Shown piece by piece: positions 30,389 to 43,727 of a DNA stretch of 64,000 nucleotides. The notes below the pieces were generated by a model, which was not told the DNA's origin, did no database searches, and was given only the letters and a program-made list of their open reading frames with translations. Origin of the DNA: Paracyclopina nana. Lineage: Eukaryota > Arthropoda > Copepoda > Cyclopoida > Cyclopettidae. Every line of letters begins with the position of its first letter. Positions within the stretch are counted from its first letter, which is position 1. The DNA lies in NCBI GenBank assembly GCA_019096065.1, contig JAGUCH010000008.1, positions 5,399,001-5,463,000 of the forward strand. The letters run 5' to 3'. Position numbers and translations under genes: made by a program.

Positions 30389-32568
30389 TGGAGGAAATAT
30401 GGAATTTCAATCACTCAACTTTTGCAAAACAAGTGAAAGGGAAAAACAACTTTTTGTCCTCTTACTCAAACTTTCCTCTTTTTGGCTGCATGATAATCTT
30501 TGCTTTGAAAAAATTTTCAACTTGCAAAAATTACTTTTGTTGAGCTTTTGGAGGTTTTTTACTGTCAGTACTATATTGAATATTTACTAAGAACCCTTGA
30601 AGCAGAAGATATGCTACGGCTTTTGTCTTAAGCAGCTGTTGTGAAGTAGAAGGAGAATACATTTGTTGAACTTCCCTTCTTACGTATTACGTATTACAGT
30701 TTGATGAATTCATACCAGTTAACATTATAAACGGTTTCAATTCTCCTTTGAAATGTTCTAAGTAGGACTACATCATTTAAGTCCATGCACTTTTATGCAA
30801 AATTATACTATTTCAAGGGGCTTCTTTGATCAGTCATTTGAAGTACACTCCCTTGCACCTCAACACAAGCCTTCTTTTGCTTATCTTTACTTTTTCTTAT
30901 TTAACAAGTATGATTTTTCTTACTTTTTCTTATTTATCCAGCTAGGAATGGCTTCTTGCCAAAGGGAGCCCATGCATTGGCCCATGTCTTTGATTTTGCA
31001 GTTAAAACTCTGTTGAGGTCAACTTTGTTGATGTAGCCATGTGGATGTGTGATGCAACCTTCAAAGGCTTGTTCTGTCCTAAATGTTGTCCTGACAAAGT
31101 TTAGCTCTTGGTGGCAAAAGGCTGTGTCCCCTCTTAGTTGGAGTAGATGGGGCCATGTTCTCTTTTTCTGCAAAATTGGATCCTGAAATGAGCAAAAATT
31201 GCCTGCTTTCTTTTATCTTCATGTGAAAATTCAATATCCCCTCCTCCACCCTTTTTCCTATGTGGTTGGATGACTTCAAGGTCATCCCAGTAGAATTTTA
31301 TGGTCTCACTGCAACATCAAATGAAAGGGCAGGCTATTAGAACATCTGATATGGTAGGCCTGAAATGGTATTTTACTCTGAACAAGTTGCAAATTCACTG
31401 GACCTCTCCTTTATGACCATCATTCATTCAAATTGGCTCAAATGCTTCTAGTTGCTCTCACTGTACTCTTTGTATTATAATCATGATTTACAAATTGGCG
31501 GCCTTGTGGCTGAGATGTAAGCGTTGAAAAAAACTTACACTGAGTATTTCCTAGGAGCCCCTTGGGTGTACCCAAAAAAGTCACTAATAGCAATTTTTCA
31601 GCAACTATATATTAGTAAATAAAGGTATCATTACCTTTGCTCTACCTCAGTTCAGTGCTGAGATACAAGCGTTGGAAGAAAGTACGCTATTTGCGAAAAC
31701 GAAAGCGGGGTGAATGTGATGAGGCACCAACTTGCTTTCACTCTGATTGAGCTGTTGGGTCTCACAATGAGCACAAAAGGAAGTGATGAATGTTACCATT
31801 GACCAGTCAAGGTCTTCTGTCTGATTGTGCTTTCAGCAAAGGTTGGGAATCAACTGGGATGTCTTTCTCTTCTTGGCTTGGAGAGAGCGCCGCCGGCTTT
31901 GCCCTCTCATCATCATGAGCCCACAGTTTTGAACAACTGCTGCTGCTCTAGCTTTTGCTGCCACCAACTCAAGTGCCAATTTCTAATTTCTCCTTTACTG
32001 CACATAGGCCAAAGATGAGCATGCTCTTTAAGCTAAAAGGTTTCCTGACTCATGAGAACTTTTTTGAGCCAAAGTTTGCTTTACTGCATCATCTCATCTC
32101 GGATGCTTAATGTTGAGAATAGACATGCAAAAGTGTAATCAAGGCTTTGGGGGGTGAGTTGACTTGGGAAAAATTATTAGAAAGCAGCCTCTGCAATCTT
32201 TGGTGGCGGAACTTAACCTGTTTACTTGAGCTACCCCAAGTTTTGCTCCTGACTTGAAAAAAGTGTCTACTTGGGCATTATCTCTGCGAAAAGGCTATGG
32301 AACTTTCTAGGAGAACTTTCAGAGGCTAAACAATGCCGAAAAACGCTGAGCATAAGCCACGTTGCGCAACAACGGCTCTACGAAATTAACTTCACTTTAA
32401 AAGCTAAAACTCTATGAGTGCATTTACCTAATCATGTTATGATGAAACCAGCCTAGACGGAGACAAATGCAAATTAATTCAGCTGTATGCCTGTTTGCCT
32501 TCGTGGTAGCACATTGCAAATGAAAAGAAAGCACGCAACAATTTTGACATTGGCCACAATTTTTCCTG
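30389..32568. other. Intergenic DNA with scattered repeat fragments
   Basis: Two related words (gctgagatgtaagcgttg at about 31511 and gctgagatacaagcgttg at about 31658) resemble a phrase in the foldback element at 27.57 kb, so old copies of that family are present. A frame on the minus strand near 31190-31080 follows a good acceptor and contains a KEN-like word (EKENMAPSTPTKR), but no exon chain could be built. Nothing else is supported. Confidence 0.35.
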
Positions 32569-32809
32569 TGTTGTGAATTTTGGTGTCTACATTATGGAAC
32601 TTGACTTCTCTCGTACAAAGCCACAACTGAGTTTATTTCTCAACCAAACACTGTATATACAATGTACTGTCAAGGTGAAATCGCATTGTACATCCTGCTA
32701 GGTGAAAGTGTGGTTAGGCAGCGCGGCTCGTACTATGCTACTATACTACTATATTACTGAAGGATGACGCGCTAGCGCCATGAATGATGAAAGTTATAAA
32801 AACATAACA
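32569..32809 (-). repeat. 3' LTR of the retrotransposon
   Basis: 241 bp, first base pair TG and last CA, identical by eye to the copy at 38074-38314. It lies downstream of pol on the coding strand. Confidence 0.93.
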
Positions 32810-32819
32810 TCCCTCCCAA
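32810..32819 (-). other. Polypurine tract of the retrotransposon
   Basis: On the minus strand the bases just before the 3' LTR read TTGGGAGGGA, the usual purine-rich primer for second-strand synthesis. Confidence 0.75.
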
Positions 32820-32968
32820 GCTAAAGAAAGCTGTTGTTAACAGGGGGATGAAGGTATTAACGAAAACCACCACCAAGTCATAAAAGTTAGAAAGTGTAAA
32901 GTCAAACTTCGGGTTTGTCAGGTCAGGTCAAACAGGATAATTATGACCAAGTCATGTTAAGGAAGACA

Positions 32969-35900
32969 TCATTTTTTCTTAGGTCGCCCCCGGCCAGGCT
33001 TGTATTCTGGCGCCCTGGCTGGTAAAGGCTGGTCTTCTATCAGAACTCGTTGAGCTCTAGCCTGATTGCGTGTCAATGAGCTTGTGGGGTCTCGTCCCCC
33101 TCGGAAGCTGTCACGGAAACGGTTGAGTAGTTTCCTAGGTGAGCCAGGGTTACTTCTTGACAGCAAGTCTGGTGGTTGATCATCTTGAGTGGGTTCATGC
33201 ACATCGTCATGAATGAGTACCTCTTCCGCAGGTGGAGAGTCTGGTTCTTGCTTAATAAGTGGAGGTGTTGTCGTCATCGGAGAGGCAATGCTGGCAGCTG
33301 GTTCCTCTGATTTGAGGGGAATTTTGGGGTTGAATTTCAGAAGTTCTGGGCAATCCAACCAAACCAATAACCCTTTCCTAAAGTTTTCTGGCTTGATCTT
33401 GGCATCTAAAACCATATTTGGATCCATTAATGGTTTTCTGGGATGCACTCCAAAAAGGAGGAAGAATGGACTCATTCTTGTTGTCTCACTCAAAGGAGAA
33501 GATGTATCAAGCATTTTTGGCAAGTAACTTATAGTGTGCTTATTAATAACTTCAGCAGCTGAATTGCATTGAGGGTGACTAGGGCTGGTTGTGCTCTTAT
33601 CTTCCCGGAGCAGATTATAAAGAGATTGACTCAACTGTGAGGTGAATTCTGTCCCTCCATCAGCAATGAGCACAGCTGGCAAGCCGAATCTTGCAATCCA
33701 TCGATTAAAAATGGCCCCAGGAACAGTGTCAGATTGTTTGTCTACCAGAGTGACAAACTCTGCATACTTACTAACAGACTCCATGATAACCAAAATATAC
33801 TTCTTTCCATCTGAATCCCTCCAAGGTCCAAAGAGGTCAGCATGGACCCTCTCCAGGGGGCCCTTGGGTTGCTGGTGGGGCAGCAATTCCACATTCGGAT
33901 GTGATTGCTCAGGTTTGGTTTTGTCACATTTCCAACATGAACTGATGTATTCCTCAACATCAGTCAATAAACTAGGCCAAAAATACTGCTCATGAATTCT
34001 TTCACTGGTTTTGTTGATGCCCTTGTGCCCAACAGCTGCATGCGCAGCACTAATAATGTCAGCATGACAAACAGCCGGTGCTGCCAACACTGATTTGGGC
34101 CCACTCATCACAAACAACAAGTCATTCATGACTTCAAAAATAGGGCCATATCTTTTAATAATCCATTTCAACTTAGGTTGTCTGGGTACAAGTCCTTGTT
34201 TAACAAAGGAAAGTAAAGCCGCAACAACCAAGTCTGTAGATTGTAGCTTCCTCATGGTTGCCCTGTCTTCTATGGCGTCAACAACTATAACCAAGTCTGT
34301 AGATTGTAGCTTCCTCATGGTTGCCCTGTCTTCTATGGCGTCAACAACTATACTTAGGGTTTCAATACATTTCCGGAGTTTCTTCATAACTGCCAGGCTC
34401 TCCATGGCCTCGACGGAATTACTGTGGGTTTCACCACTCTCTTGTAGTTTCTTCATTACTGCCATGTCCTCCATGGCCTCGACGGAATTACTGTGGGTTT
34501 CACCACTCTCTTGTAGTTTCTTCATTACTGCCATGTCCTCCATGGCCTCAACGGAATTACTGTGGGTTTCACCACTCTTTTGTAGTTTCTTCATTACTGC
34601 CATGTCCTCCATGGCCTCAACAGTGCTACAGTGGGTTTCACCACTCTCTTGTAGCCTCTTCATAACTGCCATGTCCTCCATGGCCTCAACGGAATTACTG
34701 TGGGTTTCACCACTCTTTTGTAGTTTCTTCAATACTGCCATGTCCTCCATGGCCTCAACAGTGGTACAGTGGGTTTCACCACTCTCTTGTAGCCTCTTCA
34801 TAACTGCCATGTCCTCCATGGCCTCAAGTTTCTTCATTACTGTCATGTCCCTCATGGCCTCCATGGCCTCGACGGAATTACTGTGGGTTTCACCACTTTG
34901 CAGAAGCTCTCGTAACTTCTTCAGAACTGCCATGTCATCCATGGCCTCAACAGTGCTATTGTGGGTTTCACCACCTTGCAGAAGCCCTTGTGACTTCTTC
35001 AGAACTGCCATGTCCTCTATGGCCTCAAAAGTGATATTGTGAGGTTCACCACCTTGCAGAAGCCCTTGTGACTTCTCCAGAACTGCCATGTCCTCCATGG
35101 CCTCAAAAGTGATATTGTGAGGTTCACCACCTTGCAGAAGCCCTCGTGACTTCTTCAGAACTGCCATGCCCTCCATGGCCTCAAAAGTGATATTGTGAGG
35201 TTCATCACCACCTTGCAGAAGCCCTCTTGACTTCTTCAGAAATGCCATGTCCTCCATGGCCTCAAAAGTGATATTGTGAGGTTCACCACCTTGCAGAAGC
35301 CCTCGTGACTTCTTCAGAACTGCCATGTCCTCCATGGCCTCAAAAGTGATATTGTGAGGTTCATCACCACCTTGCAGAAGCCCTCTTGACTTCTTCAGAA
35401 ATGCCATGTCCTCCATGGCCTCAAAAGTGATATTGTGAGGTTCACCACCTTGCAGAAGCCCTCGTGACTTCTTCAGAACTGCCATGTCCTCCATGGCCTC
35501 AAAAGTGATATTGTGAGGTTCACCACCTTGCAGAAGCCCTCGTGACTTCTTCAGAACTGCCATGTCCTCCATGGCCTCAAAAGTGATATTGCGAGGTTCA
35601 CCACCTCTCAGAAGCTCTCGTGGCTTTTTCAGAAATGCCATGTCCTTAATGGCCTTAACAGGGATATTGTGAGGTTCACCACCTCGCAGAAGTACAGGAA
35701 CAATCCTTTGATTTCTATACTCGACCATTGGTCTCCAAGCAGTAGCTCCTGTCAGTTTCTTGGGCACACAGAAAATACTTGAGTTCCAGGGAGAATTGCA
35801 GGGTTCCAAAATGTTCATCTCCAGCCAATCTTCAATGCTTTTGTTGATTTCATCAAGATGTGACATGGGAATCTGGAATTGTCTAGCATGAACTGGTCGG

Positions 35901-36862
35901 TGGTCATGTGTGTCAAATTTGTGTGTCATCAGGGTGCAGTCACCCAAGTCAAATTCTGAAGTGGAAATAATGTCAGAATTACGAAGTAAACACTTCAAAT
36001 AACTCTGACATAGATTAGGAGAAAGGTGATCAAGATTTGCATGCTTTAGAATGTAGTCCTCCACCTGTCTAGAAGGCCTCCCTATAACATTTTTATCTTT
36101 TAAAAACACATCATGTACTGGGATAATCTTATCGACACTCAAAATTTGCCCTGTGAAAGAAACCTTGTCTATCATAAAAGGCAATAATCCTGCATTAGTA
36201 ACCTTTATATTAGCGATTCCTTGTTGATTAGAACGGATGAGGCAATCCTCCTTGCAAAGTTGGATGGCATCGCTTCTTTGGAGACATCCTTCAAAGTGAG
36301 CTAAGGGCCCATTATCCTGGTTCTTCAGCAGCACGGAAATTGTAGCGACACTTCTGGCAGGTATGTACGTCTTCTTCTGAGTTCTGGCCTCAAGTGGAAA
36401 CTTATTTGCAGAGCGGATTTTCATCGATATGGGATCATAAAACAAGCCGGTAGCATGGATCAGGTCAATACCCAAGATCCCATCAAGTGCGAGTCCCTCG
36501 CACACGTAAAATGGCCACTTCAACTGTCGGCCTTCTATCATACAGTCTATTTCATAAAGTCCATTGATCCTTAAAGGGTTTCCGGAAGCACATGTTGCAC
36601 GTAACATCGGAGCGTTTGTAATTCTCTGAGGTCTTAGTTGGGGGGCAATTCTCCTGAATGCCATACGCGATAACAGGGAAATATTGGAGCCAGTGTCAAA
36701 CAACATTTCAAAGGTGGCTCCAAGGCTGTGGATTGATACAAAAGGTCGTTTGGTATTCTCATTCGAGGATAGCAGGCTGAAACTTGTGATTGCGTGAAAA
36801 AGCTCAACGACCTTGCGACGACCAGTGGTGTGGAGCCCACCCTGGTCGTTTACCAGTTTAAA
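32969..36862 (-). CDS. pol: Retrotransposon pol with tandem repeats in place of the RT core
   Basis: The frame is entered from gag by a -1 shift at 36862-36856 and stays open to 32969. Order of parts: aspartic protease (LFDTGSNISLLS, at 36703-36668), linker, the N-terminal end of reverse transcriptase (VHARQFQIPM, then a NILEPCNSPWNSS-type segment and WRPMVEYRNQR), about 490 residues of tandem repeats, then a connection-like segment and integrase. The integrase keeps its zinc finger (H-x4-H and C-x2-C) and the DDE residues (HADLFGPW, IADGGTEF, and Glu in NSAAEVINKH). No YxDD active site and no RNase H residues remain. The C-terminal tail is Pro- and acid-rich, then basic. The array keeps the frame, so a full-length fusion protein is possible. 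Its use is unknown. Confidence 0.88.
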   Translation of the reverse strand, partial: FKLVNDQGGLHTTGRRKVVELFHAITSFSLLSSNENTKRPFVSIHSLGATFEMLFDTGSNISLLSRMAFRRIAPQLRPQRITNAPMLRATCASGNPLRINGLYEIDCMIEGRQLKWPFYVCEGLALDGILGIDLIHATGLFYDPISMKIRSANKFPLEARTQKKTYIPARSVATISVLLKNQDNGPLAHFEGCLQRSDAIQLCKEDCLIRSNQQGIANIKVTNAGLLPFMIDKVSFTGQILSVDKIIPVHDVFLKDKNVIGRPSRQVEDYILKHANLDHLSPNLCQSYLKCLLRNSDIISTSEFDLGDCTLMTHKFDTHDHRPVHARQFQIPMSHLDEINKSIEDWLEMNILEPCNSPWNSSIFCVPKKLTGATAWRPMVEYRNQRIVPVLLRGGEPHNIPVKAIKDMAFLKKPRELLRGGEPRNITFEAMEDMAVLKKSRGLLQGGEPHNITFEAMEDMAVLKKSRGLLQGGEPHNITFEAMEDMAFLKKSRGLLQGGDEPHNITFEAMEDMAVLKKSRGLLQGGEPHNITFEAMEDMAFLKKSRGLLQGGDEPHNITFEAMEGMAVLKKSRGLLQGGEPHNITFEAMEDMAVLEKSQGLLQGGEPHNITFEAIEDMAVLKKSQGLLQGGETHNSTVEAMDDMAVLKKLRELLQSGETHSNSVEAMEAMRDMTVMKKLEAMEDMAVMKRLQESGETHCTTVEAMEDMAVLKKLQKSGETHSNSVEAMEDMAVMKRLQESGETHCSTVEAMEDMAVMKKLQKSGETHSNSVEAMEDMAVMKKLQESGETHSNSVEAMEDMAVMKKLQESGETHSNSVEAMESLAVMKKLRKCIETLSIVVDAIEDRATMRKLQSTDLVIVVDAIEDRATMRKLQSTDLVVAALLSFVKQGLVPRQPKLKWIIKRYGPIFEVMNDLLFVMSGPKSVLAAPAVCHADIISAAHAAVGHKGINKTSERIHEQYFWPSLLTDVEEYISSCWKCDKTKPEQSHPNVELLPHQQPKGPLERVHADLFGPWRDSDGKKYILVIMESVSKYAEFVTLVDKQSDTVPGAIFNRWIARFGLPAVLIADGGTEFTSQLSQSLYNLLREDKSTTSPSHPQCNSAAEVINKHTISYLPKMLDTSSPLSETTRMSPFFLLFGVHPRKPLMDPNMVLDAKIKPENFRKGLLVWLDCPELLKFNPKIPLKSEEPAASIASPMTTTPPLIKQEPDSPPAEEVLIHDDVHEPTQDDQPPDLLSRSNPGSPRKLLNRFRDSFRGGRDPTSSLTRNQARAQRVLIEDQPLPARAPEYKPGRGRPKKK
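34235..35700 (-). repeat. In-frame coding tandem array inside pol (about 19 units)
   Basis: Two related unit types follow each other. First come about ten units of 26-27 residues (GGEPHNITFEAMEDMAVLKK core, 78-81 bp). Then come about nine units of mostly 23 residues (SGETHSNSVEAMEDMAVMKK core, 69 bp), ending in two shortened, diverged copies near 34235-34360. All changes keep the frame. Neighbouring units are nearly identical in places, as after recent unequal exchange. It replaces the RT palm, thumb and RNase H. Confidence 0.92.
36818..36862 (-). promoter_or_regulatory. Programmed -1 ribosomal frameshift signal between gag and pol
   Basis: The heptamer T-TTA-AAC sits in the gag frame at 36862-36856. 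A 6-nt spacer that includes the gag stop codon follows. Next is a stem-loop: ACGACCAG (36849-36842) pairs with CTGGTCGT (36825-36818), and an inner GGTG/CACC pair around a 7-nt loop adds four more base pairs with one bulged A. Slipping by -1 enters pol exactly in frame. UUUAAAC is one of the most efficient known slippery sites. Confidence 0.85.
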
Positions 36863-38004
36863 GGGTTGGAATGGTAGGAGGCACGAACTTCATTGACCTT
36901 ATTTGCCTCCTGCTCTGTTGCTCTTTTACTGCCAGGCCTTGGGTTGTACATGCCCTTAGCAGCATCTGCTTGCCTGGAAAAGCACTCAGCCTCACTATGA
37001 TTCTTCTTGGTGCAATACCAGCAGACCATGTTGGCTCGGAACTGTCCACTTGCAGGACCCCGCACTTGTCCTCGGGCTTGTCCTTGCACTTGTCCTTGCA
37101 CTTGTCCTCGCGCTCCACTTCCATTGATGAGATTCACAAGTGCTCCTAGTGTCAGAGGCTGGTTGTGAGGATTGCTCTCCTGAGCACTGTCGGCTTGCTC
37201 AACAGCATGGACTTCAGGGACTGGTACAGTGGCTTTCTTTTCACTTGACAATGAGGCCTCTACACGCTTAGCAACCTTTAAGATTGCCTTAAGGTCCGTG
37301 ATGTTATGCACGATCACCTGCTTCTTGATGGCAGGTAACAGACCTTGAATGAACTTTCGCCGGCATGCGAACACATATGCGCTCCTCTTGCACATTTCTA
37401 CGGCAGCATCATTTGTGGCATACTCGCCCTCACCAAGGACGATGAAAGTTTCCATTAGGGTCATGACTCCAGTTTTTACACGGTCATAGAAATCCCGCAC
37501 GGATTCTGATGCCTCCTGCACCAGGCTGTCCTCGATTGCGGACTGTTCGGCTAAAGTGGCCTCATGGTGCCAATGATCCAGGAACTCCTTCTTCAGACCA
37601 GATACTCCACTCCACTCTTTAGGAGCAAATCCCTCTTCCTTTAGGGTGTTATACCATTGTGCTGCCTTGGCTTTGAGTGCCATGGCAGCGTACATGGCTG
37701 TCATTTCGTCCGTCCATCTTTGCGGCTGTCCAGCTGGGATGTTTTCGTTGGCAAGGGCTCTTAAATCGTCGATCCTCCTAGCCCATGCTCGTGCTTGCAG
37801 CTTGTCAACTGCAGGGTCCCCACTAAATTCGGGTACATCAATTGCCTTGATATTACGCTGAGCCATAGTGAACAGACATTGTTGAGGAAATGCGGAGGTT
37901 TCTGTGTTATCCTCTTGTGGTGGAGCAGTAGGTGGAATTGTTCCCTCTGATGAAGCCTCTTCGTAAAATTCGTCCTCATAATATTCGTCCTCACTATCAG
38001 CCAT
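36850..38004 (-). CDS. gag: Retrotransposon Gag
   Basis: 384 residues from the ATG at 38004, 70 bp inside the 5' LTR edge. The N-terminus is very acidic (DSEDEYYEDEFYEE). A Gag-like central part follows, with a WYNTL...FLDHW-type segment. Near residue 330 is a CCHC zinc knuckle, C-WY-C-TKKN-H-SEAE-C, which binds the element's RNA. Product role by family: forms the virus-like particle. The stop at 36850-36852 is inside the frameshift signal, so most ribosomes make Gag alone. Confidence 0.88.
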   Translation of the reverse strand: MADSEDEYYEDEFYEEASSEGTIPPTAPPQEDNTETSAFPQQCLFTMAQRNIKAIDVPEFSGDPAVDKLQARAWARRIDDLRALANENIPAGQPQRWTDEMTAMYAAMALKAKAAQWYNTLKEEGFAPKEWSGVSGLKKEFLDHWHHEATLAEQSAIEDSLVQEASESVRDFYDRVKTGVMTLMETFIVLGEGEYATNDAAVEMCKRSAYVFACRRKFIQGLLPAIKKQVIVHNITDLKAILKVAKRVEASLSSEKKATVPVPEVHAVEQADSAQESNPHNQPLTLGALVNLINGSGARGQVQGQVQGQARGQVRGPASGQFRANMVCWYCTKKNHSEAECFSRQADAAKGMYNPRPGSKRATEQEANKVNEVRASYHSNPLNW

Positions 38005-38054: not shown

Positions 38055-38071
38055 TAAGTGAGCTGCCACCA
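38055..38071 (-). other. Primer-binding site, probably for tRNA-Leu
   Basis: Two bases after the 5' LTR the minus strand reads TGGTGGCAGC, the complement of a 3' tRNA end ...GCTGCCACCA. From general knowledge this fits tRNA-Leu of the UAG/AAG group over about ten bases, after which the match fails. The tRNA identity is an inference. Confidence 0.55.
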
Positions 38072-38073
38072 GT

Positions 38074-38314
38074 TGTTGTGAATTTTGGTGTCTACATTAT
38101 GGAACTTGACTTCTCTCGTACAAAGCCACAACTGAGTTTATTTCTCAACCAAACACTGTATATACAATGTACTGTCAAGGTGAAATCGCATTGTACATCC
38201 TGCTAGGTGAAAGTGTGGTTAGGCAGCGCGGCTCGTACTATGCTACTATACTACTATATTACTGAAGGATGACGCGCTAGCGCCATGAATGATGAAAGTT
38301 ATAAAAACATAACA
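38074..38314 (-). repeat. 5' LTR of the retrotransposon
   Basis: 241 bp, TG...CA, identical by eye to the other LTR. It contains the presumed promoter and poly(A) information of the element, but no TATA box was assigned. Confidence 0.93.
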
Positions 38315-40307
38315 CCTGCATGCTAAAGTAAAGTGCTCTTAAACTTAATTGAAATTGTGCAGACCAAGAACATTAACAACATGGCTTTCAGGAAACAGCA
38401 CAATTTGCTCATATTTGTAATTATATTGAAGCTCTATACCGCAATATATGTTCTTTGTGCTCGCTAAACCTTTGGCTTAGTATTGTAGTACCTTAACTTG
38501 TAGCCATAGGGAACCGTAAAACGGTACCATATTTATCCTACCGGCGAGCTCATAAGATTTCAGACGGCTGATCGCTGCTTACGCTGCGCCGTCTGAATTA
38601 GCAAAATGCCTCATTTTTTTTATTTTCTTTCGCAAGGTGTAATTTTCACAAGCTTAAGTAGAGCCTATGTTTCAAATAGACCAATTATATTTACATCTCA
38701 CTATAGTAAGAGTGGTACAAGATGATCTATAATATAAGGTGAGTGGTATATTTCCTGAAATTCCATCTTTTCCTTTGGGCTGGCTTACGGGCAAGGTAGA
38801 GCACTAATTAAAAGTGTTCCCAGATTGACACACTAAATTAAAGTGGCTTTTTTACACTGGCTCTTTTTGACTATTTTGTACAGTTCACATCTAGTAGCTC
38901 ATTTGATGAACGTGTCAACTACGCTCGCGCACTGATGACGTCAAGCCGTCTGAACTCAGTGGCATATAGTGCATTCAGCCAGAGCAGTAAATTGAGTAAA
39001 GAGTATAATAAACTCAGTTTGACTAACAACAACAAGTACTGACTAAAAAACGAGCGTATGTGTTAGGCCACTAAAATGTAGCCTTGTATCTTGCCTTAAG
39101 CAAGAAAATGTCCCTGCTATTTCTTCTTCTGTCCCTCAAAATGATGAATGGATCTAAAAAAACTTGGATTACAATTCTAGAATTTAAAATATGAGCTCTA
39201 AAAAATTTGTTTTCTTTTTTGAATTTCCCGCTCAAATTGATGTGCAGTCTTGTCAGAGTTATCTGTATGGTTTTTGACAACAATCGACTTTTTGTTTGGA
39301 AAAAAGCCAATTGCTCTGATTAACTTGACTTAAAAAAACCACATCTAAAACACTGTTATCAACAAAATTCACATGCGAACCAACTAATAGTAAACAAAAC
39401 GTTTTTTGGAATTGTTGGGACCAAAATGGCAAAGAAAGTGCTCATTTTGAGCTTGTAACAGCACAATTGATTCAAGGATTAGATTGGTACCATTTTGAGT
39501 AAGATTCTTGAAAGTCAAGGAATTTTGGATCATCAGTCACATCATATCCAGACCTGAGTATGATGGATCAAATCAGAATAAATAGCCTTACTTTTTGTAG
39601 CTCTGCTCTGTGTGAGTTCAAAACAAAAAAGTTCATCTGGTGTGGATTCAATAAAAATGGCTAATTTTTCAGCAAATAAGCCATTACTTGTAATAAGTTG
39701 AGGAAACAAAATTTTCTGGTAATCATGATTGCCATGCTATAGTTGTTGTACTGGCATGGAAAAACTGGGAAAACGCAAGCCTTAAAGTAGCAATTTTGCA
39801 AATAGTTATTCTAAAAATTGGCTTTTCTGTAAACTTTATGACTATTTTCGGTTTTATCTGGCTACACTGAAGAAAGTGAGAGAGGGGAGAAGAAAAAGTG
39901 GGAGTGGGAAAGCAGATATGGATAGTTTATTAAATGATTTTTTAAATTTTTCTTTACAAGAATGAGTTATGTGGGTGGGAAAAAAACTAAGATTTGTACC
40001 TGCACGAGCTAGAAATATGTGCTTATGGTGCAAATCGATGAATTTTGAAGAATCCTTTGTTCAATGGCAGCATCTCTGCTAGCATGTGCCTGCCCCCCGC
40101 CAAATGGCAGAATACGTAAGAAAGCTGTGAAATTAGTCTATTTCAGCAAAACTGAGCAAGCAGAGTGGCCCTCTCTATTTATTGCCCTGCATTCAGCTTG
40201 ACTTCGGGTTCCTATAGCTGATGGAATGCAAACATTTCTTTTTTCACACCCACCCATTTGAAACTTTCAGTAACGTTGGGATATTGCACTGCACCAAATC
40301 AATAGCA
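38315..40307. other. Intergenic DNA upstream of the ionotropic-receptor pair
   Basis: No gene is seen. A 10-bp inverted repeat (TTCAGACGGC at 38559-38568 and its complement at 38588-38597) encloses a GC-rich loop. A third copy of the right arm lies at 38945-38954. The rest is AT-rich, with an in-frame ATG at 40221 that could extend the first receptor. Confidence 0.4.
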
Positions 40308-41984
40308 ATGAGGATCAACTTTATTTTGTCATGGTTTGTGCTTTTTAAGTGTTCCGTTCAGGCTTTAGATAATATAGAAATAACTGAAAATCTGAAAAAA
40401 TTAGCGTGGACCTCAGCTAATTTTATTGACGACTCATCAATAATCAATGGTACATTTTCACTATTGAAAACTGCCTCGAATGAGGACATTTATGTGAAGC
40501 TGACCAAGAATGTTTCTAGATCTGCAAAGAATGTGCTTCTATCACGTGATTGGCAACTAATAAGATCTTGCTTGCAAAGCAGTTATCCCAACAACTGCTT
40601 TCTATTGAATGATATACACTCAAACTTATTGAAAAGCTTTAAGAAACCATCTAGCTTTTTTTGTCTGAGAGGTGGGCAGATTTACTTGACTTTCACATTT
40701 AGAAATCAAAGCAGTATGGCTGAAAATTTGTGGATACCAGGTCAAGGGTTTCAAAGGCTCAGTCTCAATGGAGCATCCTTGTATCTTTTGCATAAAGACT
40801 TTGATTGGTTAGCTGTCGCTCAAAGTTGCAAGAACAAAGTCTTGGGCCAGGATTGTACCCTAAAAGGACCAATCATGGATTACTGGAACGAGATGAAAGA
40901 ACAGCTTAATTTTAGCACGAAGATTGATATATTTCATGGTGGTTGGGGAGTCACTCCCATCAATGGGAATTGGAGCAATCCTAATGAGTTTGCAGGAACT
41001 TTGTTTGGTTCAATCATCCAAAATATGGCTGACTTACCCACATCCTATTACTTGGCAACTCTTGAACGAACTAACCATGTTTCACTTTCCTTACCTACAA
41101 CCTTATCAAAGTTTAGGCTTTTTTACAACAAAGCCAAACTGCCTCAGAATCCGGATTGGACCAAGTTTTCTAGGCCGTTTACCAAATCAACATGGCTGAT
41201 CTTCCTTTCCATAATTGTCATCCTGACCGGCTTTCACTTTTGGTCCTCTTATATGAAATTAAATGAAACCGTAAGAGTTGTTGAGCTATGTGGATGGCTC
41301 ATGTTTGTTTTCATGTTTGCTTTCTATAACGGAGCTTTGACCATGTTTTTCACGAGTGCTTCTAAACCTCCTGCTCAAGACTTGAGAGGAGTCATGCGAG
41401 CCTTTCCAAAATGGAAATTATTGATACACCCAGACAATGATGTTGTGTTTCAGCCAGCAGCAGCATCTGGAGATCCAGACTATGAAGTATTCTTCAGAAA
41501 AGCTCAAGTACATTAAAACAATTTAGAAACACTTTTTGTTCTGCAGCCATTTTGGAACAGAGTGCTAGCAAATCCGAAATTTTACAAACATAACACTTCA
41601 TCAGCAATTAAGAAGCTCAATGAAGAGTCTGGACTTGTTTACTTTGGCAATGAATGGAACTTTAGGCATACTTTGAGGAATAACTTGATGTCAATCTTAG
41701 ATCATAAAAGCGAAATTGTCAGTTTTGGCAAAGCAGAGAAAAAAGGGCATGCATTTGTTATGCCCCTTAATTCCCCGTTTGTGCAAGTCATCAATTATGG
41801 TATCCTTCTCCGGTTGGAAGCTGGAAAAGTCATTTATAAAAAGGAAATGGCTCTTGAATATCCTCCCACAAATGATTTGGCCGATATGGGATTGACTTTA
41901 AATGATTTTGTATTGCTGATATCTATTTTTGGTAGTAGCTGTGTACTTGCATTGCTCATATTCTGTTGCGAAAAGGCCAAATGA
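40308..41984 (+). CDS. Ionotropic-receptor-like (IR) protein, copy 1
   Basis: Two exons, 40308-41486 and 41547-41984 (60-bp GT-AG intron), give 538 residues. The start at 40308 yields a signal peptide (MRINFILSWFVLFKCSVQA); the in-frame ATG at 40221 would bury it. The parts are typical of divergent iGluR-like receptors: a ligand-binding S1 lobe (HGGWGVTPINGNWSNPNEF), transmembrane segment 1 (WLIFLSIIVILTGFHFW), the pore-to-TM2 region (FMFAFYNGALTMFFTSASKPP), an S2 lobe and a last transmembrane segment (FVLLISIFGSSCVLALLIF). The donor was chosen because it aligns DPDYE-PFWNRV with DPDYKGFWDRV of copy 2. Family role: ligand-gated cation channels in chemosensory dendrites. The ligand is unknown. 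Confidence 0.78.
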
Positions 41985-42080
41985 AGCCCTAGTTTTTATT
42001 GGAAGATTGGACTATTCTTTATCCCACCCTGAAAGCAAATATCACTGTTGAGCCCAGTTTGTTAGTAATAATTGAAAGTT

Positions 42081-43727
42081 ATGAACCACTGTTACATTAA
42101 ACTTGTTCTGTTGGCTATTTTTGGCCAAAGATCATTTGGGTCACGTCCTGATATTAGTAGGTTACTACTAGCTTTGGATAATTTGACTTGGACAAATGTT
42201 AACCTGATTCATGATGAAAGACCCAACCGCAATTTCAGAGGATTAATAAAAGCTGCTTCATCAAGCAACGTTTATGTCAAGATTGTGCAAAGTGTTGACT
42301 CTGACAGCAGAAATGTTGTCATCAATCAAAATCAAAGTTTAGTCGAAGATTGTATCATCAGCAGCAAACCTAACAGTTGCTTGATTTTGTCTGAAGCTCC
42401 ACGAAATCATTACAAAAATATACGGAAGCCCAGAAGTTTTTTTACCAGCAGAGGCGAGGAAATTTTGCTAACATTTACTTTCAGAAACCAAAGCACAATT
42501 GCTGAAAATGTGTGGCAAAAAATTGGGGGAGTAATGAAGTATGACCTAAAAGGAGGGATTATGACTGCCATACACAAAGATTGGCCTAAGTTTGCATCAT
42601 GGCTCTCTTGTAAAGATGAAGTGAATGACATGGATTGCTCCTTGGAAGGAATTATTAATAGTTATCTGGAGGCTTTCAAAGAAGTTGCAAATTTGAGCAC
42701 ATCTGTTGATTTGTTTCATGGTGAATGGGGCACCACTCCCAAAAATGGAAATTGGAGTGATAAAAATGCCTTTTCAGGCACATCACTAGAAAAAATAATG
42801 GCCCATGAATGTGACTTCTTGACAGTGTATTTTACACCAATAATTGAAAGAAGAGAATATTTGTCATTTTCCCATTCACTCACAGTGAAAAAGCATGCTC
42901 TTTTTTTCAACAGAGCTTTGCTGCCTGAAGATCCAGATTGGACCAAGTTTCAGCGCCCTTTCACAAATGAAGTATGGATTGCCTGCAGTGCCATAATTAC
43001 CATCATCAGCTGCATGTCCATCTTCTTGCAGAAGATTGATGCTACCTCTGCAAACAATTTAACAATTCTTACTTTTTGGCTTTCTTTTGTGTTTGTTTTC
43101 GCCTATCATAATGGAGCTTTAACCATGTTCTTTACTAGCTTGCCTAAGCCACCTGCATCAGATATGAGAGGAGTTATGCAATCTTTTCCAAAATGGAAAC
43201 TATTGATAGGTGATGATGAAGCAATATTCTTTCAGCCTGCTGCTTCTCAGGGTGATCCTGACTACAAAGGGTTCTGGGACAGAGTTCAGGCCCATCCAAA
43301 TTTGTACATGGCTAGTTATGACTTGGCTGCTCAGAGACTTGTTCATGAGCGAGGTTGGGTATTTTTTGGCATTGAAGAGTTCTTCATGAAGGCAATAGAG
43401 GAGCAAAGCATTCATGGTATGGATAGCAACATAATCAGCTTTGGCAAACCTCTCAAAATGCAAAACTCATTCATGCTGCCTTTACACTCACCTTTTGCTG
43501 AAGTCATCAACTACTCCATCCTTAAAATGACTGAAAAGGGGGTATCTGACATTATCTTCAAAAGGAGACAGTCAAGTGTTTTACCCCCTCATTCAGAATC
43601 AGTTAAAGGACTTAGTGTTAATGATGTCATTCTTTTGTTTGTTCTCATGGCAATTGTAGCTTTTGTTTCTTCTTTAATTCTTGCTGCTGAGATTTATTCT
43701 TGCCGCTTTAAGAATGGGTCCAACTGA
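42081..43727 (+). CDS. Ionotropic-receptor-like (IR) protein, copy 2
   Basis: An intronless frame of 548 residues in tandem with copy 1, only 96 bp downstream of it. It has a signal peptide (MNHCYIKLVLLAIFGQRSFG), a matching S1 lobe (HGEWGTTPKNGNWSDKNAF), TM1 (EVWIACSAIITIISCMSIF), the pore region (FVFAYHNGALTMFFTSLPKPP), an S2 lobe (FQPAASQGDPDY) and TM3 (VILLFVLMAIVAFVSSLIL). The long amino-terminal domain of true glutamate receptors is absent, as usual for IRs. ATG 42081 was chosen; the TTG at 42072 is not a likely start. The pair clearly arose by local duplication, and the intron of copy 1 was gained there or lost here. Confidence 0.8.
   Translation: MNHCYIKLVLLAIFGQRSFGSRPDISRLLLALDNLTWTNVNLIHDERPNRNFRGLIKAASSSNVYVKIVQSVDSDSRNVVINQNQSLVEDCIISSKPNSCLILSEAPRNHYKNIRKPRSFFTSRGEEILLTFTFRNQSTIAENVWQKIGGVMKYDLKGGIMTAIHKDWPKFASWLSCKDEVNDMDCSLEGIINSYLEAFKEVANLSTSVDLFHGEWGTTPKNGNWSDKNAFSGTSLEKIMAHECDFLTVYFTPIIERREYLSFSHSLTVKKHALFFNRALLPEDPDWTKFQRPFTNEVWIACSAIITIISCMSIFLQKIDATSANNLTILTFWLSFVFVFAYHNGALTMFFTSLPKPPASDMRGVMQSFPKWKLLIGDDEAIFFQPAASQGDPDYKGFWDRVQAHPNLYMASYDLAAQRLVHERGWVFFGIEEFFMKAIEEQSIHGMDSNIISFGKPLKMQNSFMLPLHSPFAEVINYSILKMTEKGVSDIIFKRRQSSVLPPHSESVKGLSVNDVILLFVLMAIVAFVSSLILAAEIYSCRFKNGSN

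What the first reader, a model, noticed from the sequence alone, without database searches (positions are those of the whole stretch)
34235..35700. Young LTR retrotransposon whose RT core is replaced by an in-frame tandem-repeat array
Seen: LTRs that look identical, a target-site duplication, gag, protease and a full integrase, but the reverse-transcriptase palm and RNase H are swapped for about 19 repeat units of 69-81 bp, all in frame. Known: without RT the element cannot copy itself. Inference: either it is mobilised in trans as an integrase-plus-repeat-fusion element, or the array grew after insertion. If other copies share the array, this is a non-autonomous family with a novel protein domain.
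Basis: partly seen in the sequence, partly recalled or inferred. Interest (0 to 1): 0.88.

Follow-up and report, generated by a model that had tools for sequence, protein, structure and literature searches.

The report
RT-less retrotransposon family with repeat array
A family of jumping elements has lost its copying enzyme, carries in the gap a multiplied piece of its own protein linker, and still spread recently, most likely by borrowing the enzyme of intact relatives in the same genome.

Summary
The window carries a 5,746-bp Ty3/gypsy-type element (minus strand) with identical 241-bp LTRs, a 4-bp target-site duplication, open gag and an open 1,306-aa pol frame. The RT palm and RNase H are absent; a 1,470-bp in-frame array of 19 units lies there instead. 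"Full integrase" is wrong: the integrase has three large in-frame gaps.

It is a family. The genome holds 14 such arrays (8-23 units counted). All 7 array copies with both LTRs scored have identical LTRs and perfect 4-bp duplications at different sites. Another 26 places match a single unit; in 12 of 13 examined it directly follows RNase H, in the linker before the integrase, in relatives whose LTRs are 94-96% identical. The array is thus an amplified native linker, not a foreign domain.

Best reading: a non-autonomous family mobilised in trans by those relatives. Its gag is still constrained, its RT stub and integrase near neutral. Array length changes by whole units, and relationships switch across the array, as expected of template switching in reverse transcription. 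A function of the array protein is not supported. Array-bearing LTR elements are known; the listings and passages I saw showed none inside pol.

The parts
32565..32568 (.). target-site duplication CCTG, low-coordinate copy
32569..32809 (-). 3' LTR
   Evidence: 100% identical to the other LTR
32810..32821 (-). purine-rich tract next to the 3' LTR (polypurine-tract position)
   Evidence: same 12 bases in the 14 LTR pairs compared; function recalled, not tested
32969..36889 (-). pol ORF, 1306 aa, stop to stop
   Evidence: Pfam domains
32972..34225 (-). integrase remnant with three large in-frame gaps
   Evidence: zinc domain 33911-34069 and weak core match 33575-33862; gaps against the RT-bearing relative
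34226..35695 (-). in-frame tandem array, 19 unit cores, derived from the linker between RNase H and integrase
   Evidence: single unit in relatives
35696..36070 (-). N-terminal stub of RT, cut at the start of the palm
   Evidence: comparison with the RT-bearing relative
36686..36700 (-). protease motif LFDTG
   Evidence: read in the pol translation; motif recalled
36850..38004 (-). gag ORF, 384 aa, with a CCHC-like motif
   Evidence: weak Retrotrans_gag match, 22.9 bits under the 24.1 cut-off
38062..38073 (-). primer-binding-site position next to the 5' LTR
   Evidence: same bases in all 7 array pairs; one base differs in 3 of 7 RT-bearing pairs; the tRNA was not identified
38074..38314 (-). 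5' LTR
38315..38318 (.). target-site duplication CCTG, high-coordinate copy

Best explanation
A recently moving, non-autonomous Ty3/gypsy-type family. In an ancestor the linker between RNase H and integrase was multiplied in tandem; the RT and RNase H core, and in the successful lineage parts of the integrase, were lost in frame. The element RNA still carries its own LTRs, priming and polypurine positions and its own Gag. Reverse transcriptase, RNase H and integrase are supplied in trans by RT-bearing sister elements with nearly the same LTRs. During reverse transcription the array lets the growing strand slip or switch templates, so unit number changes from copy to copy and the array is a joint of mosaic elements. 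Shown here: the family, the shared array, young insertions, the origin of the unit, relaxed constraint on the RT stub and integrase, array length changes, mosaicism. Inferred: the supply in trans, and that the switching happens in reverse transcription.
For: 14 arrays in the genome, 12 of them with one and the same RT junction. 7 of 7 testable pairs with 0 LTR differences and perfect 4-bp duplications. RT-bearing relatives with 94-96% identical LTRs, 8 of 24 with a 1368-1371 aa open frame. One unit in the native linker, also in an outside relative. Gag open (372-384 aa) in 7 of 8 array copies. pN/pS among array copies: gag 0.29, RT stub 0.96, integrase 0.70; among RT-bearing copies 0.11 for each. 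C7a and C7b are separate young insertions sharing a frame break in the integrase, so a copy with a broken integrase was copied. Whole-unit changes between near-identical copies and relationships that switch across the array.
Against: No reads, RNA or population data, so movement and supply in trans are not seen directly. LTR pairs were testable in 7 of 14 array copies. Selection counts are small and copies are related (p = 0.024 and 0.015, uncorrected). The mosaic tests are 9 uncorrected comparisons picked from 55 pairs, and their breakpoints are only placed in or near the array. Protease keeps an intermediate 0.51, so pol may not be wholly free of constraint.
Confidence: 0.8

Rival explanations
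1. The array protein is functional: a repeat domain joined to the protease and integrase remnants, for instance a particle scaffold or an inhibitor of the helper, kept by selection.
For: 10 of 14 arrays have no stop and 13 of 14 have a length divisible by 3. Over all units pN/pS is lowest in the real frame: 0.58 against 0.70-1.40 in the five others. The whole pol frame is open in the window copy.
Against: Single-step recent unit variants are 6 synonymous to 16 nonsynonymous, close to the neutral expectation of about 20% synonymous. In C1b a unit with a stop codon was itself duplicated. Unit number varies widely between near-identical copies. Frames behind the array are cut short in 6 of 12 copies. 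No credible Pfam match, no confident fold (pLDDT 47.9).
Confidence: 0.1
2. The arrays change length and recombine by unequal exchange or gene conversion between chromosomal copies, not in reverse transcription. The family is otherwise as described.
For: Tandem arrays are known to change by unequal exchange, and near-identical copies with different arrays do not show when the change happened.
Against: The 7 testable copies have 0 LTR differences and intact duplications at separate sites on 5 contigs, leaving little time after insertion and no sign of flank exchange; length change and mosaics fall on the same place, as template switching would give.
Confidence: 0.25
3. The array differences, or the arrays themselves, are assembly artefacts.
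For: Tandem repeats are prone to misassembly, and no reads were available.
Against: 14 places with different unit orders, the same order of unit types, coding frame kept; two separate loci agree over 1,470 bp except in one unit (C8 window and C2a).
Confidence: 0.03

Closest known systems
RT-bearing sister elements in the same genome (Ty3/gypsy type; 26 places with one unit)
   Same: LTRs 94-96% identical, same bases at the polypurine and (but for one base in 3 of 7) primer positions, gag, protease, RT N-terminus, integrase zinc domain and core
   Different: They have RT and RNase H, one linker unit, and an integrase without the large gaps
Non-autonomous LTR families with tandem repeats in Culex quinquefasciatus (PMC3286476; passages seen)
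   Same: LTR elements of an animal that spread without coding for their enzymes and carry tandem repeats inside
   Different: Those 38 families lack coding sequence and have no known master; here gag is open, the master is present and the repeats come from a coding segment
Plant Ogre/Tat and Retand elements with variable arrays (PMC7004042, passages and Discussion; PMC11963269, passages)
   Same: Hypervariable tandem arrays in Ty3/gypsy elements, also in non-autonomous ones; abnormal strand transfer between co-packaged copies proposed as the source
   Different: There the array lies behind pol, in the 3' untranslated part; here it is inside pol, in frame, and its source segment is known

Membership tests
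Ty3/gypsy (Metaviridae) LTR retrotransposon | pol order protease, RT, RNase H, integrase (order recalled) | tested here: met
   Met in the RT-bearing relative for RT, RNase H, integrase; the window copy keeps protease motif, RT stub and integrase in that order but lacks RT palm and RNase H
Ty3/gypsy (Metaviridae) LTR retrotransposon | LTRs starting TG and ending CA, short target-site duplication | tested here: met
   TGTT...AACA in coding orientation and 4-bp duplications in 7 of 7 array pairs
Ty3/gypsy (Metaviridae) LTR retrotransposon | primer-binding site complementary to a host tRNA | not tested
   Position conserved; no tRNA was matched
Non-autonomous LTR retrotransposon family | lacks a needed enzyme, yet several young copies share the defect | tested here: met
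   12 of 14 arrays share one RT junction; 7 of 7 testable pairs are young
Non-autonomous LTR retrotransposon family | moved by enzymes of a partner element | not testable with these tools
   A partner with near-identical LTRs exists; the supply itself is inferred
LARD or TRIM elements | no coding capacity inside (definition recalled) | tested here: not met
   gag and pol remnants are open in the window; gag frame in 7 of 8 copies
Ogre/Tat or Retand type array elements | array between pol and the 3' LTR (PMC7004042, PMC11963269) | tested here: not met
   array lies inside pol, before the integrase

The most novel reading that the evidence does not exclude
The amplified linker has become a working part of the parasite: either a repeat protein fused to the protease and integrase remnants, or a built-in recombination platform that lets an RT-less element keep swapping its two halves with other copies and so persist.
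Probability: 0.12. Interest if true: 0.75.

Novelty: new variant of a known kind. Interest (0 to 1): 0.5.

Why it matters
Donor, derivative and an older intermediate sit in one genome, so one can follow how a coding segment of pol turned into a hypervariable tandem array while the element lost RT and still spread. Comparing young copies unit by unit makes the proposed origin of such arrays, abnormal strand transfer in reverse transcription, which the authors of PMC7004042 call undetermined, testable. It also shows how far a parasitic element can strip pol while gag stays under constraint.

Tried and rejected
Array as a foreign domain: rejected, the unit is the native linker and no credible Pfam match exists. 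Array as a one-off grown after insertion: rejected. Array as a dispersed satellite: (82 of 82 candidates scored) lists no array outside the 14 places except an inverted fragment inside the C7:2.73M copy. Several independent RT losses: considered because L052 and L051 have other junctions, not claimed, since one loss with later trimming fits as well. Midpoint-rooted tree grouping L051 with the RT-bearing copies: not used, an outgroup is missing. Protein search with residues 400-900 of the window pol: no hit among 7990 scored candidates. Structure prediction of the array: mean pLDDT 47.9, so no fold search was made; strands for near-perfect repeats are, as I recall, a known artefact. Selection values for RT stub and integrase conflict (1.31 and 0.34; 0.65 and 1.06) because of junction codons, different copy sets and gap removal out of frame; one search replaces them. 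Part of the script failed on lower-case letters; its unit results stand. Host: not identified; the two long ORFs beyond the element gave no Pfam match.

Rows left out: L053 and L054 overlap L043 and L044 and were not counted apart; L056 was not examined; C7:2.73M was left out; C2b and C4 were left out of selection counts, as was C9b for gag (frame broken).

Literature: six searches. I saw their listings (titles and starts of abstracts), passages of three papers and one Discussion; no array inside pol appeared there. Only open-licence papers are held, so this is weak.

Full report
What is there. On the minus strand of the window, between 32569 and 38314, lies an LTR element of 5,746 bp: two identical 241-bp LTRs, a CCTG duplication on both sides, gag (384 aa) and pol (1306 aa), both open. 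The pol frame runs through a protease motif, the N-terminal part of RT, a 1,470-bp array and the integrase. The array holds 19 unit cores without a stop. In reading direction its first part has units of 26-27 aa and its second part units of 23 aa, with one unit of 38 aa between them and a short repeat of 21 aa near the end. Pfam sees integrase domains only. The integrase is incomplete: against an RT-bearing relative it has three large in-frame gaps and a small one.

It is a family. The array was searched in the window's own genome (92 Mb, 10 contigs) as DNA and as protein. Both give 14 places with arrays, the window included; an inverted fragment lies inside the C7:2.73M copy. Unit cores per array are 23, 19, 19, 18, 17, 17, 16, 14, 13, 12, 11, 10, 9 and 8 (a looser pattern finds 18 in the C7:2.73M copy, and double spacings in L051 hide further units). 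13 of 14 array lengths are divisible by 3; the 14th, L051, is bounded differently. 10 of 14 have no stop. 12 of 14 share the same RT junction; L052 (contig C4) and L051 (C1:9.97M, the most diverged, called C1old) do not.

They moved recently. In the LTR search (40 of 96 candidates scored) seven array elements have both LTRs. All seven pairs are identical and all seven have a perfect 4-bp duplication, each of other letters: CCTG, GTGG, GTAT, CATT, ATTA, AATA, TTTT. Seven RT-bearing pairs in the same call have 0, 0, 1, 0, 0, 0 and 5 differences. The twelve bases inside each LTR, where polypurine tract and primer site belong, are the same in both groups, except for one base on the primer side in 3 of the 7 RT-bearing pairs. 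RT-bearing copies have LTRs 94-96% identical to the window's, and 8 of the 24 single-unit places lie in an open frame of 1368-1371 aa. So a possible source of enzymes exists in the same genome.

Where the unit comes from. One search lists 26 places with a single 65-73-bp match to the array (a lower bound: 40 of 62 candidates scored). 14 of these loci were fetched and 13 examined (L056 left out): in 12 the end of RNase H runs directly into one unit, followed by the integrase, and 11 carry RT and RNase H in the same open stretch. The closest outside protein, P0001 (62% identical over the searched part), has this linker once, and it aligns with the unit at 44% over the 93 columns around it. A single unit is therefore taken as the old state and the array as its amplification.

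Order of events. C1old has 10 unit matches directly behind a 13-residue remnant of RNase H, a longer piece of RT (27 residues of the palm), and an integrase without the three large gaps of the other array copies, though with a gap of its own in the core and broken frames. The array is thus older than those integrase gaps, unless C1old took its integrase by recombination. L052 keeps another piece of RT (21 residues of the palm). Whether RT was lost once and trimmed later, or several times, and whether the array or the RT loss came first, stays open. At the junction of the main group the RT side and the RNase H side share six bases, GATTAT, in the same frame, which suits a jump between short repeats.

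What selection says. On codon alignments pN/pS among array copies is 0.29 for gag (7 copies), 0.51 for the protease part (8), 0.96 for the RT stub (10) and 0.70 for the first 240 integrase codons (10; 1.06 without C7a and C7b). Among RT-bearing copies it is 0.11 each for gag (7), RT stub (10) and integrase (11). Counting distinct changes in the same seven array elements, gag has 15 nonsynonymous to 15 synonymous, integrase 21 to 8, RT stub 13 to 2; gag against the other two gives p = 0.024, and integrase of array copies against that of RT-bearing copies (6 to 12) p = 0.015. Counts are small and copies related, so this is support, not proof, that gag still matters to the family while RT stub and integrase hardly do. 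Earlier, conflicting values are not used.

Is the array protein used? Over 55 distinct unit cores pN/pS is 0.58 in the real frame against 0.70, 1.03, 1.40, 0.72 and 1.05 in the other five, but the single-step, recent variants are 6 synonymous to 16 nonsynonymous, close to the neutral expectation of about 20% synonymous. In C1b a unit with a stop codon was itself duplicated. I see little constraint on the array now. A structure model had mean pLDDT 47.9 and says nothing.

How the array changes. The strings of unit types show whole-unit losses and gains: C9a lacks two neighbouring units of the window's order (besides point changes), and C2a differs from the window in one unit. C3 and C1b differ by 5 and 6 substitutions in the kb on either side but have arrays of 804 and 1791 bp; window and C1a by 6 and 4, arrays 1470 and 819 (11 of the 12 main copies compared). 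Relationships also switch across the array: window and C7a differ by 4 upstream but 27 downstream (p = 1.6e-5), window and C3 by 39 upstream but 13 downstream (p = 2.2e-4), while C3-C1b and C7a-C7b are even (nine pairs tested of 55, uncorrected). Opposite directions speak against a plain rate difference. Trees of the RT stub and of the integrase place C7a, C7b and C3, C1b differently. Breakpoints thus lie in or near the array. Template switching in reverse transcription explains length change and mosaics together; exchange between chromosomal copies remains a rival.

C7a and C7b are separate young insertions that share a frame break in the integrase, so a copy with a broken integrase was copied; this too speaks for enzymes supplied by others.

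Comparison. Culex has 38 non-autonomous LTR families with tandem repeats but without coding sequence or known masters (PMC3286476, passages). Plant Ogre/Tat and Retand elements carry variable arrays behind pol, also in non-autonomous copies, and abnormal strand transfer between co-packaged copies has been proposed (PMC7004042, passages and Discussion; PMC11963269, passages). The present family works like these but has its array inside pol, made from a known coding segment, with gag open: a new variant of a known kind.

Limits. No reads, expression or population data; 7 of 14 array copies with testable LTR pairs; host unnamed; the literature search covers open-licence papers only.

Noticed in passing
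34068-35042 (+): A 324-aa open frame, stop to stop, runs antisense through the integrase side of the array; probably a by-product of repeating a stretch that is open on both strands.
   Followed up: no
34226-34352: A perfect 63-bp duplication at the integrase end of the array is seen only in the window, C2:10.74M and C9:3.14M copies among the 14, marking a young subgroup.
   Followed up: partly
40218-43727 (+): Two neighbouring long ORF stretches of similar sequence beyond the element, by eye like tandem receptor genes; no Pfam match at E 0.001.
   Followed up: partly
L044 (C7:2725569-2730066): This array copy is rearranged, with an inverted array fragment and an inverted repeat of the integrase end behind the array.
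   Followed up: no
L050 and L056 (C3:2.859-2.867M): An array copy and a single-unit copy on the opposite strand lie within about 3 kb of each other.
   Followed up: no
L043 (C1:2153551-2157948): The longest array (23 cores) contains the same stop-bearing unit twice, three units apart: a block duplication after the stop arose.
   Followed up: partly
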